A stretch of DNA of 64,000 nt. Origin: Owenia fusiformis (Eukaryota > Annelida > Polychaeta > Sabellida > Oweniidae). A program made the translations under genes and the position numbers. The stretch spans positions 6,451,098 to 6,515,097 of the forward strand of contig CAIIXF020000001.1 of the NCBI GenBank assembly GCA_903813345.2, written 5' to 3'. Under the pieces are notes generated by a model. It ran no database searches. It was not told the DNA's origin and worked only from the letters and a program-made list of their open reading frames with translations. Shown one piece after another: positions 33,101-39,100 of the stretch (within the stretch, counting starts at the first letter, position 1; every line of letters starts with the position of its first letter).

Positions 33101-36100
33101 CATCTACATCTTTTCAGAAGTTCAAATTTGACTTTACAAGTTCTCAGAAGTTCATATCTGACTTAAGATTTGACCTTTGACCTTCAATGACTTTCTCAAG
33201 GTCAAAAAGGTCTGTTTTCAACTTGCTTCAAATTGACTAATTTTTTTTTCAAAATCATCTACATGTTCTCAGAAGTTCTTCTTAAAGTGTGCGCCAAAGT
33301 TTAAAACTGCGCAGGCGCACCGCTCTCGCTAAACTATATAAAGAGATTACCAGGTACACGATTCAGAGGTAAGCCAGGAAGGCGAACGATCTTCGTCTCG
33401 TGATGATTTCCCATATAATTGTAACCAGGGAAGTTTCACCATTGAAATTGAAAATTGCTATTAGATATACTTTGTAGATGTTATTTATGAAGCTATTTAG
33501 TGTTTGCATCAATCAAATGGCTCATTTTGAACATATAAAAAGTATTTGTGTTTTGTTTCCCAGGGAATTGTATTGTTTGTAGTACACACATAAATAGTGT
33601 ACATTATACAGTACTTGAATAGCCTGGTTTACATAATATTGAAGGGCATGCTGATTACATGCACACGAGTACATGAATGAAGGCCTAATATAGATATACG
33701 TAGCTTGCATACCTAAATAAAAAATAAACTCTTCTAATCCCCTAATGTAAACACGGCGGTATACGTAGCCCGATTTATCGGAGACTTTAAGGTCAAAAGG
33801 TATTTTCCAACTTGCTTTAAATTGACCAAATTGTTTTAGGTGGTGACATTTTGTCATGTTAATGCCTTGTTCAATTTTGAAATTGTTCTAATGTCTCCTT
33901 TATTGTAGACAATTGGCCCTTTTTTCTCTTTATACAAAGAATATAAGATTTCCTTTGACATATTGTTTTGACTATAGTATATTGTATTGATTTTAGGATA
34001 TTGTATTGACTCTTACATATTGCTTGACTTTAACATATTGTAATGACATAAGGATATTGTATTGACTCTTACATATTGCTTGACTTTAACATATTGTAAT
34101 GACCTCAGTATATTGTATTGACTCTTACATATTGCTTGACTTTAACATATTGTAATGACCTCAGGATATTGTATTGACTCTTACATATTGCTTGACTTTA
34201 ACATATTGTAATGACCTCAGGATATTGTATTGACTCTTACATATCGCTTGACTTTAACATATTGTAATGACCTCAGGATATTGTATTGACTCTTACATAT
34301 TGCTTGACTTTAACATATTGTAATGACCTCAGGATATTGTATTGACTCTTACATATTGCTTGACTTTAACATATTGTAATGACCTCAGGATATTGTATTG
34401 ACTCTTACATATTGCTTGACTTTAACATATTGTAATGACCTCTGGATATTGTATTGACTCTTACATATTGCTTGACTTAAACATATTTCATAATTGCTTG
34501 TGTTCCCAGAGAGGTGGATGATGATGAGTACAAAGGTGGGGGTGAGAGTTACTATGGAGTTGCACACAAAATTGTGGAAATTGTCACAGAGCAGGCCTCT
34601 ATTATGGTCAATGGAAAACTAAAGGAATATCAGGTAAGACTAGCTACCCTGTTAATTAGTAAAGACAATGAAGAAAGCTTCTTGCAAAATCTCTCATTTT
34701 GGTATTATTGAAGTTGCATCATATTTTGTAATAGTATGTGGCTACATTATCATACTATTATATATAACCGACCAATTTAGTATAGAACCAATAATGAACC
34801 AGACTTTCAAATATGCAAGAATATCTTTACTGACACAGAATAACTTCAAATTCCTTCCTGGTACAGCACATGGATTATTTGGAACTTTTGCTCAGCAGAT
34901 AAATGTTTATAGGTTTATTAATGTAAATATTTGAATTATAAACAATACTTCATGAAATGCATGATCACATACATTTATATTTACTTGCACATGCATATAT
35001 ATATATGCATATAAATATGTTTCGTATATACATTTGTCATTTATGTAACCAAAGAATTGTGATGTGCCTGATACATGTATTTATATATCAAATAAGAAAC
35101 AGACATTTACCTTATAAATATGTGTGCCTGTTTCCCAAAGCACATCTTGAATAGATACACCTGAAGGGTAAGTATATGATATATGAAGTTATGTATATTA
35201 GGTTACCTAATAAAGGAACCGTAAAAACAAAATAAAAACAAGTTAAAACAATTGATTTTTTATTTCTGTGTACTTGTATGTTTATCTATGTTGCATGGCT
35301 GACTTTCAGATTAAGGGACTGCAGTGGCTAGTGTCCCTCTATAACAACAGTCTCAATGGAATCCTTGCTGATGAGATGGGCCTGGGCAAGACCATACAGA
35401 CCATAGCTTTAATCACATATCTCATGGAGGCTAAAAACAATAAAGGACCATATCTGATCATTGTGCCACTGTCGTAAGTATAGCATAGACCCATGTACAG
35501 TTGGGCCCCTACAAGTTCATGTCTGTTAAAGCGGAAAGCTCTTTAGAATGTTTTTTTGTTTACTAAAATTCCAAATAGACATGTTAAACTGAAAGTAAAA
35601 TACTATTAAAGAAAGGCAATAAGATTTGAACTGGAAAGCTTTGATATGTTTACATTGACACTGCTGAACAGACAGTAACTTGCAAGGGCCTTAGAATATT
35701 AATCACTGTATGAGAGATGTCTCAGTGAAAAAAAAACCTGCAAATTATTCAAAATAATATTTTTGATGCATGTTTATCCGTATGTTTATTGATGATAAAC
35801 ATTTTGTTATTATAATTTATTTTTCCCCTAAATTCACTTGAGGCATCTCAATATTACACATTCTCATTTCTTATAGGGAGTCCTGTAAAACAACACCTAG
35901 ATGGACTGATGGTGCTTCTGTTTCAATAAATGGGGTTTACATATTTCATATTAAGGAGAATTGTGATAAATTGTGGGGTTTACATATTGTAGGTCAAGGG
36001 CCTTCAGTGGTTGGTTTCATTGTACAACAACAACCTGAATGGCATCTTGGCTGATGAAATGGGCCTAGGCAAAACAATTCAAACTATTGGCCTGATCACT

Positions 36101-39100
36101 TACTTGATGGAGACAAAGAGAGTCAATGGACCTTATCTTATTATAGTTCCATTGTCGTAAGTGGTATCATGACAGCGAGCCAGCAATGTTTCAAATAAGC
36201 TTTGTGCTTTTTCTGTATACAATTAAACCAAAAAGCATGACATGTAGAGAGATGTTATTTGTTCTTGGGTAATTATACAAATTATTGCTGCGCTTCTGTT
36301 TGTGTTGGTTTTGAATTGTTCATGCTGTTTTTGTTGCTATGGCTTAAGGCTTCTTGATCATAATCTTCAATGGTATGTGAATATATGTGTACATGTTATG
36401 TCATTATACATGTCACTGGTTTGTCACCTTTAATTTGGATTTGAGTCACCTTATTCCAGAAAATATAATAATAAACAGTTCATCCTATCAGTTAGCCTTA
36501 TGCACAGCCTCAGTCTCTCAATCGTTATTGCACTTCATTGAATTTAGAGTTGGGGCTCTAGTCACTAAAGAAAATGGACCATTTTCATGTAAATCACGAA
36601 AGACTTGACTAAGAAAGCATTTTTGTTCAGTTTTATGCATTATCATTCCATATTAATGCTTTGAATATACATGCTCATTTGATACCCAGGGCATGTATTA
36701 TTGTTCTACTAGGCCTATTAAGGTATTCTAGTTCTTAGTTGCTTTTGATATTATAGAGTATGTTTTGATATAATGTCAATTGTTGTATTAAGAAATCATG
36801 TCACAACTTATAAATATATAAATTAAAGAAATACAGAATAATTAGAATATATCAATTCAACATATCTAAGTAATCACATGTATTACTTCAATTTAATTCT
36901 AGCACACTATCTAATTGGATGTTGGAGTTTGACAAATGGTCGCCTTCAGTGATCAAGATAGCGTACAAGGGATCACCGAATGCCAGAAAATCTCTTCAGT
37001 TCCAAGTGCGATCTGGCAAATTCAACGTTCTCCTAACAACATATGAGTATGTGATCAAAGATAAAGGTGCCCTGGCTAAGGTAAGAAAACGAATCCTATT
37101 TCTACCATCCATGTAAGCCAGTACATTTTTTTTATATTAAGATGCTTTTCATTTCTTTTGTATTTTCTCTTTGAAAGGCTGCTTGGAATCCTTTCAAGCT
37201 GAAACCAAAATCAATTTATTTCAATTTCAATACAGGTTTGTAATATTATTTTATTTCATGTCTTTTCAACCTATGTATATGTAGAGATCCATAATTAATT
37301 TCCAAGCGGATGTCATTGTGATAATAAGATTCAAGATTTTATTATGTTTCAAGCCAAACCAATTGACATCCTCACAAAATCAATTACAAGACATAATAAT
37401 TATACAGTAAAATGCATTGTTAAACAAATATTTACATATAACTGTCTTACAAACTAGTTTATTCCTTTTTCAAATACCTCCCGACGTTGATTGAAAAGTT
37501 TATTTATAAATGTATCAATTTGTTTACAATTTCACATTTAATAATAACATTACATATACTTATTTTAGGTTCGCTGGAAGTACATGATAATTGATGAGGG
37601 TCATCGTATGAAGAACCACCACTGTAAGCTGACGCAAGTCCTCAACACACATTATATTGCCCCTCATAGGTTACTCCTCACTGGGACACCTCTACAAGTA
37701 GGTCAATTGCCATAAATTGTGTAATCATCGTACCAATAGTGTATATTATTGGCTCACACAGTTAGCCTATGGAATCAACTAGGCGTCTGTCTGTCTCTTG
37801 ATCCGTCCATCTGTCTGTCCTTTTTTACCTACAGTATCAAGAGAGTAGTAATTTTCAAATGATAATATAAATGTTATATTGTTAAGTAAATAAATATGAT
37901 CGTAAAGTTCTGTTTGCAACAGTTAGTGGCGTATTCTGTTTATGAACTTATTTTCTTTTTACTTCAGAACAAACTTCCAGAATTGTGGGCCTTATTGAAC
38001 TTCTTGCTTCCTCACATATTCAAGTCTTGCAGCACATTTGACCAGTGGTTCAATGCACCATTTGCAATGACAGGAGAGAAGGTAATGTAATGTAGATTTG
38101 CTTTAAAAATATGACAGGCTAAAGTACATTTATATATCTTTTTACATTCCCACTGTTATTCCTCAACTGCTATCTCATTTTTAATAAATCTTTGAAGTCT
38201 TATACTACATATGAAGGTTCATTAGAATAGGTTATATGCAGATCAAAGATAAACATGCAATATTCTACATACCGTTTTAATGATATTAAATCATCAGTCA
38301 TATTCAATACTTAAATGGATGAACACAATACATTGTGTATGTTCACAATTTGCTTTTAGGTTGAGTTGAATGGTGAGGAATCTCTTTTGATTATTCGTCG
38401 TCTTCACAAAGTGCTGCGTCCATTCTTGCTACGTCGTCTCAAGAAAGAAGTGGAGAGTCAGCTACCTGATAAGGTGAGAAATGCCGATATTTAACCAAAA
38501 AATAGAGGTCATTTTTGTTTGTAATATTATATAAAATATTAATTTTATGCAATGCTAATAGTTTCTAATACTCAAATAGTGTGACACTTGTTTCTAAACC
38601 TTACAAAGTTTGCATTTTTAATAGTTTGTTATTTATGTAACTTTATGCTTGTATTGTAGGTTGAGTACCTGATCAAGTGTGAGTTGTCAGCTCTTCAGAG
38701 GTATGTTTACAAACACATGGCCACCAAAGGAATACTTCTGACTGATGGATCAGAAAAAGACAAGAAGGTAGAAGATACTTTCTGTTGTTTTATGTATATT
38801 TAATGTAGACTAGAAATATACGAAGTGGCGTATAATACAATGGCCCATTCTGTATAATGTGTTTTTATGCTCCAATTGCATTGATATGTCATCAAGGCGC
38901 ACAAATATAATCATGATATATAGAATGAACTATCATTTCCTTGTAGTGTATTATTCAATCTTCACTGAGCATTTGAAATCTGTATGATGAAGATGTTTAC
39001 ACGCCTTGATTGTTTTCTGTAGGGCAAAGGGAGTACAAAGACATTGATGAACACGATCATGCAGCTAAGAAAGATCTGTAACCATCCATTCATGTTCCAA

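What the first reader, a model, noticed from the sequence alone, without database searches (positions are those of the whole stretch)
35310..36156. Duplicated, mutually exclusive Walker A exons in the SWI/SNF ATPase
Seen: two 164-nt exons encode the same 55-residue SNF2 motif I segment with 48 of 55 identical residues, identical phases and strong donors. Joining both meets a TGA; skipping both meets a TAA. Synonymous sites differ widely while the P-loop [12 protein letters not shown] is unchanged, so both copies have been under selection. Inference: the cell makes two remodeller motors differing at the ATP-binding lobe surface (AKNNK versus TKRVN, S versus N, A versus G), which may alter ATPase rate or partner contact. 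This would be an unusual way to diversify BAF complexes in an animal with one BRG1/BRM gene.
Basis: partly seen in the sequence, partly recalled or inferred. Interest (0 to 1): 0.93.

Follow-up and report, generated by a model that had tools for sequence, protein, structure and literature searches.

The report
Two alternative ATP-binding exons, one remodeller
An animal in which only one gene was found for the motor of its SWI/SNF chromatin-remodelling machine carries two anciently diverged versions of the exon that encodes the ATP-binding core, apparently to be spliced in one at a time, which could give it two motors from one gene.

Summary
Exon A (35310-35473) and exon B (35993-36156) are both 164 nt, AG/GT bounded, phase 0 to 2, and encode the same Walker A segment of a BRM/BRG1 ATPase, 48 of 55 residues identical. 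Using both gives an early TGA, using neither a TAA; either one alone leaves a complete 1,535-aa ORF with QLQ-HSA-BRK-SNF2-Helicase_C-SnAC-bromodomain. No other exon of the gene is duplicated, and no second BRM/BRG1 gene was found. Silent sites are saturated (13 of 18 shared fourfold sites differ) while 7 of 55 residues differ, so both copies were long kept as protein. Best reading: a mutually exclusive exon pair enforced by frame and nonsense-mediated decay plus unknown trans-acting choice; I found no steric, U12 or RNA-pairing device. No RNA data and no related animal genomes were available. A known kind of splicing in a gene part where my searches showed no report of it.

The parts
27169..43696 (+). 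BRM/BRG1 (SMARCA2/4-type) gene, coding part; 30 exons read, 29 per transcript, 1,535 aa with either A or B; QLQ-HSA-BRK-SNF2-Helicase_C-SnAC-bromodomain
   Evidence: exon model read by eye and spliced; Pfam on the A form; 5' UTR exons not sought
34510..34633 (+). constant upstream exon (ends KEYQ; donor CAG|GTAAGA, one of three tied best donors of the gene)
35292..35297 (+). TGCATG (Rbfox-type hexamer, name recalled) 13-18 nt upstream of exon A; hypothesis only
   Evidence: 3 such hexamers in the three flanking introns, a number reached in 49 of 500 shuffles
35310..35473 (+). exon [56 protein letters not shown]
35474..35992 (+). intron between A and B, 519 nt, GT-AG: too long for steric exclusion
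35931..35999 (+). 26-nt direct repeat pair, 43 nt apart, the second copy holding the acceptor of exon B; the first ends TTAAG|G, a possible decoy acceptor whose use would shift the frame
   Evidence: (D3, 81%)
35993..36156 (+). exon [56 protein letters not shown]
36903..37080 (+). constant downstream exon (TLSNW onward); entered in phase 2 from A or B

Best explanation
Exons A and B are an ancient pair of mutually exclusive exons in the animal's apparently single SWI/SNF ATPase gene. Each productive mRNA carries exactly one of them. Shown from sequence: either exon alone keeps the frame; both or neither gives a stop within 15 codons of the wrong junction; the two copies have been held under strong protein selection for most of their separate history. 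Inferred: wrong products are removed by nonsense-mediated decay, the choice is biased by trans-acting splicing factors acting on suboptimal sites (Rbfox-type motifs are one weak candidate), and the two motors differ mildly, through Ala/Gly in the helix after the P-loop and a surface loop before motif Ia, rather than in catalysis itself.
For: Same length, phase and splice signals, with homology ending at the splice signals (172-nt match). Frame logic. Silent sites saturated (13 of 18 shared fourfold sites differ; NG86 dS not computable, dN 0.10) with 7 of 55 residues changed. In simulation, when 24 of the 48 changes fell without constraint, 7 or fewer residue changes arose in 0 of 500 runs. Divergence A-B (7 of 55) is about that of each copy from human BRG1 (A 7, B 6 of 55), so the pair is old or the copies sped up. 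No second BRM/BRG1 gene found; of 30 exons only A and B match each other over exon length. Contrast: the ISWI-like gene of the same genome has a young array of partial exon copies, 95% matches.
Against: No transcript evidence and no relatives. Four of seven changes are at columns that vary freely in SNF2 proteins, so diversification of function is not demanded. No enforcing RNA structure found. If only 12 of 48 changes were unconstrained, 7 or fewer residue changes arise in 24% of runs, so a fairly late loss of constraint in one copy is not excluded; and lack of stops alone says little (43% of runs with 24 free changes have none).
Confidence: 0.82

Rival explanations
1. The pair is chiefly a dose switch: failing to choose (both or neither) yields decay-bound mRNA, and the cell tunes the amount of its single SWI/SNF ATPase this way; the protein difference is neutral.
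For: A+B and neither both stop early; three of the four sites of A and B are among the weakest of the gene; four of seven residue differences lie in free columns.
Against: A dose switch needs no second coding copy: a poison exon without a conserved P-loop would do, yet both copies keep the full Walker A segment at saturated silent divergence.
Confidence: 0.12
2. One exon is the working copy and the other is an unused or noise-level duplicate.
For: No RNA evidence for either; acceptor A is weak (27th of 29); B has Gly33, absent from 78 ungapped loci of the prokaryote collection.
Against: Protein conservation against saturated silent sites; Gly33 does occur in 1 of 12 own-genome paralogous loci (L086).
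Confidence: 0.05
3. Assembly or haplotype artefact that placed two alleles in tandem.
For: None seen.
Against: 48 of 164 nt differ and the homology stops at the splice signals: not alleles.
Confidence: 0.01

Closest known systems
Mutually exclusive exons of muscle myosin heavy chain (Mhc) in protostomes (PMC3912159, passages read)
   Same: A single motor-ATPase gene diversified by swapping homologous exons inside the motor domain; scallop exons differ mainly in loop-1, reported there to affect ADP release.
   Different: Myosin, not an SNF2 translocase; several clusters per gene. Here one pair and sequence only.
Human tandem duplicated exon substitution events (PMC9741552, passages) and the human MXE atlas (PMC5740500, passages)
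   Same: Homologous tandem exons, mostly ancient, mostly conservative; 60% of human MXE clusters contain exons whose length is not a multiple of three, so joint use is unproductive.
   Different: No SMARCA gene is named in either main text (0 occurrences); supplements not seen.
Alternative splicing of human SMARCA4 (PMC6071210, passages; review PMC10968829, passages)
   Same: Same gene family; PMC6071210 lists SMARCA4 among annotated clusters with three exclusive exons.
   Different: PMC6071210 does not say which exons or whether they are homologous. The review places SMARCA4 events near exons 26-29 (an extra 96- or 99-bp exon, a TG acceptor), i.e. not at the P-loop exon by my recall of the gene order.
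BRG1/BRM (SMARCA4/SMARCA2) gene pair of vertebrates
   Same: Two exchangeable motors for one complex.
   Different: Two genes there; here one gene with two exons (analogy, inferred).

Membership tests
BRM/BRG1 SWI/SNF ATPase (SMARCA2/4) | QLQ, HSA, BRK, SNF2 ATPase, Helicase_C, SnAC and bromodomain in order | tested here: met
   all seven above Pfam cut-offs and in this order (A form)
BRM/BRG1 SWI/SNF ATPase (SMARCA2/4) | closest solved relatives are BRG1/BRM chains | tested here: met
   7vdt, 6lth, 9ayq and others, E about 1e-189 to 1e-187 over 341 aa of the A form
Mutually exclusive tandem exon pair | adjacent homologous exons of equal length and phase with intact splice sites | tested here: met
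Mutually exclusive tandem exon pair | joint use or joint skipping destroys the frame | tested here: met
   TGA and TAA
Mutually exclusive tandem exon pair | each transcript carries exactly one | not testable with these tools
   no RNA data held
Steric-exclusion MXE | donor to branch point of next exon under about 50 nt | tested here: not met
   intron A-B is 519 nt, so a branch point at a usual place is far from the donor; the <50 bp criterion is from PMC5740500
U2/U12-incompatible MXE | one splice site of the minor type | tested here: not met
   donors GTAAGA, GTAAGT, GTAAGT with AG acceptors, U2-like by eye; no U12 model was run
Dscam-type docking/selector MXE | competing intronic complementarities stronger than chance | tested here: inconclusive
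   best ungapped helices between the three introns are reached by 79, 20 and 20 of 200 dinucleotide shuffles; no relatives for covariation, and gapped helices were not properly scored

The most novel reading that the evidence does not exclude
A lineage with one SWI/SNF ATPase gene has for a very long time made two functionally distinct remodeller motors by swapping the ATP-binding exon of lobe 1: a splicing-based counterpart of the vertebrate BRG1/BRM gene pair, regulated by tissue or stage, acting inside lobe 1 itself and outside the post-HSA/alpha2/protrusion-1/brace hub known to tune these enzymes.
Probability: 0.45. Interest if true: 0.78.

Novelty: new member of a known kind. Interest (0 to 1): 0.57.

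Why it matters
SWI/SNF motors are among the most conserved chromatin enzymes; vertebrates diversify them with two genes (BRG1, BRM). A long-conserved exon swap in the ATP-binding core would be a natural experiment on which lobe-1 positions tune a remodeller without breaking it, and would show that the catalytic core of a remodeller can itself be switched by splicing. It is directly testable with RNA-seq.

Tried and rejected
Third copy or other duplicated exons: tblastn of both proteins against the window gave none at E <= 0.05, but exons e10, e11 and e28 did not even match themselves there; blastn of each of the 30 exons against 26001-45000 found each exon itself, and beyond that only A-B over exon length, plus eight further matches of 20-37 nt. 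Docking/selector pairing: nothing unusual against shuffles. Rbfox hexamers: TGCATG 3 observed, mean 1.15, 49 of 500 shuffles reach it; GCATG 5 observed, mean 2.3, 40 of 500: weak, kept as a hypothesis. Relatives: the prokaryote genome collection gave 80 loci (82 confirmed, 80 kept), used for column variability only; viral contigs gave 4 pattern matches, 0 confirmed. Neither collection is meant to hold animals, so age, conservation and dN/dS across species could not be tested. Gly33 as a residue never seen in SNF2 proteins was rejected: 0 of 78 ungapped loci with the A query and 0 of 77 with the B query, but present in 1 of 12 own-genome paralogous loci (L086). At positions 43-45 the residue counts depend on which copy is the query, because gaps are placed differently, so part of the variability there may be misalignment, and I do not say which copy looks ancestral. 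The ranks rest on the A-query alignment, 79 of 80 loci (L079 dropped for a short match); column 1 was covered by only 6 of them. GC3 does not single out either copy (A 0.54, B 0.52, gene 0.47). Structure prediction was not attempted, because the spliced protein is not contiguous in the window. I did not try to name the species by sequence.

Literature: 10 searches; bear on novelty. Searches listed 25 of 704, 15 of 269 and 20 of 2,236 papers; some searches listed all; one search found none. I read passages of PMC6071210, PMC9741552, PMC5740500, PMC12153100, PMC3912159, PMC7853424 and PMC10968829 and of the rest saw listings only. In what I saw nothing reports duplicated P-loop exons in a BRM/BRG1 gene. 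Most subscription papers and preprints are not held.

Full report
What is there. The window (C1:6451098-6515097 of an unnamed 498-Mb, 525-contig assembly) holds on its + strand one complete SWI/SNF ATPase gene. I read 30 exons by eye, of which a transcript would use 29 (e1-e12, A or B, e14-e29), coding from ATG 27169 to TAA 43696. With exon A or with exon B the product is 1,535 aa without internal stop. Pfam finds QLQ, HSA, BRK, SNF2-related, Helicase_C, SnAC and bromodomain in that order (the A form was scanned). Its nearest solved relatives are human BRG1 and BRM chains. The introns between these exons are GT-AG except the one after 40931, which is GC-AG.

The pair. Exon A is 35310-35473 and exon B 35993-36156. 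Both have 164 nt, enter in phase 0 and leave in phase 2, and share the donor GTC|GTAAGT. They encode a segment that corresponds to BRG1 759-813 by the alignment and holds Walker A; in that numbering the P-loop lysine is 785 (its identity as the Walker lysine recalled). 48 of 55 residues are identical; the differences are I1V, S14N, A33G, A41T, N43R, N44V and K45N. Homology extends only 2 nt upstream and 6 nt downstream of the exons (172-nt repeat), i.e. the splice signals.

Age and selection. 48 of 164 nt differ, 35 of them at third positions; 29 codons differ silently and 7 change a residue. 13 of 18 shared fourfold sites and 10 of 20 other same-residue sites differ; NG86 could not compute dS (saturation) and gave dN 0.10. 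If half of the changes had fallen without protein constraint, 7 or fewer residue changes would occur in 0 of 500 simulations; with a quarter, in 24% (multiple hits ignored). So both copies were selected as protein for most of their separate history, although a late relaxation of one is not excluded, and the absence of stops alone is weak evidence (43% of runs with half the changes free have none). The copies differ from each other (7 of 55) about as much as each differs from human BRG1 (7 and 6 of 55); an old duplication or faster change after it would both explain this. A contrast comes from the same genome: an ISWI-like gene on C2 (named by my reading) carries 4.8 copies of a 137-bp unit holding an acceptor and part of an exon, with 95% matches, which is what a young exon duplication looks like here.

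One gene, one duplicated exon. A 195-aa query found this gene's exons at 74-98% identity, and its other matches are 34-68% identical. A 60-aa query found the two exons at 96% and 84%; the other 13 matches are 48-70% identical, the 70% one over 37 residues. So I found no second BRM/BRG1 gene, subject to gaps and withheld stretches in the assembly. blastn of each of the 30 exons against the gene region finds only A and B matching each other over exon length; the remaining cross-matches are 20-37 nt.

How exclusion would work. A+B runs into a TGA 15 codons past the junction; skipping both runs into a TAA after three codons. Both lie well upstream of later junctions, so decay is expected (established rule, inferred here). 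The 519-nt intron speaks against steric exclusion by the under-50-bp criterion of PMC5740500; the sites look U2-like; the best ungapped complementarities among the three introns are not unusual (reached by 79, 20 and 20 of 200 shuffles). [quoted passage not shown] The choice itself must be biased by factors: scored against this gene's other sites, donors A and B tie for 27th-28th of 29, acceptor A is 27th and B 21st of 29. A TGCATG lies 13-18 nt upstream of A, others at 34958 and 35767, and a GCATG at 36235, 79 nt below B. An Rbfox-like factor repressing A and favouring B would fit, but the enrichment is weak (49 of 500 shuffles reach it).

What the change does. Positions 41, 43, 44 and 45 rank 3, 1, 7 and 2 of 55 in variability over 79 of 80 loci from the prokaryote collection; positions 1, 14 and 33 rank 35, 20 and 25 (position 1 from 6 loci only). 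Overall the seven changed sites are more variable than random sets (106 of 20,000 permutations reach the value). Those loci are mostly bacterial, and alignment at 43-45 is unsure, so the scale is coarse. It says the pair differs mainly where the family tolerates difference: fine tuning or neutral drift, not a new activity. By the general RecA fold (recalled) the loop 41-45 lies between the helix after the P-loop and the motif Ia strand, on the face away from the ATP cleft. Gly33 in B is within that helix; Gly is absent from the 78 ungapped loci, where Ala, Ser, Val and Thr occur, but is present in 1 of 12 own-genome paralogous loci, L086, CHD-like by my reading. The exon lies outside the post-HSA/alpha2/protrusion-1/brace hub that regulates Sth1 (PMC7853424, passages); the alpha2-like SYYGVAH stretch is in the constant exon before it (my reading of the motif).

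Known kinds. It works like the myosin heavy chain exon swaps of protostomes, where a single motor gene is diversified inside its ATPase domain (PMC3912159, passages), and it meets the sequence criteria of a mutually exclusive pair that I tested; the RNA criterion is untested. PMC6071210 lists human SMARCA4 among annotated three-exon clusters without saying which exons, and a review places the known human SMARCA4 events near exons 26-29 (PMC10968829, passages), so alternative exons in this gene family are not unheard of. My searches showed no duplicated P-loop exon in a BRM/BRG1 gene, within an open-licence library, with some listings capped, and with passages read of seven papers only.

Verdict. 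Observation confirmed; interpretation as a selected exclusive pair probable; interpretation as two functionally different motors plausible but open.

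Noticed in passing
L001 (G000:C2:4914200-4917700), array at L001 1174-1829, gene on - strand: An ISWI-like SNF2 gene carries 4.8 tandem copies of a 137-bp unit (95% matches), each with an acceptor and the start of one exon ([29 protein letters not shown]); only the last copy continues into the rest of the exon. Young, and 137 is not a multiple of three.
   Followed up: partly
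window 40932: GC-AG intron (donor GAG|GCAAGT) in the same ATPase gene.
   Followed up: no
window 31891-34509: The intron before the constant exon holds large tandem arrays (32280-33278, 136/285-bp units; 33953-34487, 56-bp unit), the last ending 22 nt before the exon.
   Followed up: no
window 35931-35999: 26-nt direct repeat (81%), 43 nt apart, the second copy containing exon B's acceptor; the first could act as a decoy 3' splice site.
   Followed up: partly
G000:C124:9749-9859 and C2:18538430-18538540: CHD-type P-loop exons (my reading) identical over the aligned residues in two places, one on a 589-kb minor contig: possibly an unmerged haplotype or a recent duplicate.
   Followed up: no
window 9049-10836 and 50510-51409, - strand: ORFs that look like an ABC transporter (DECTSAVS motif) and a rhodopsin-type GPCR, read by eye.
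   Followed up: no
L079 and L002: Contigs filed under bacterial MAGs whose SNF2 segment is unusually close to the animal one (79% over 42 and 67% over 58 residues); perhaps eukaryotic contamination in the bins.
   Followed up: no
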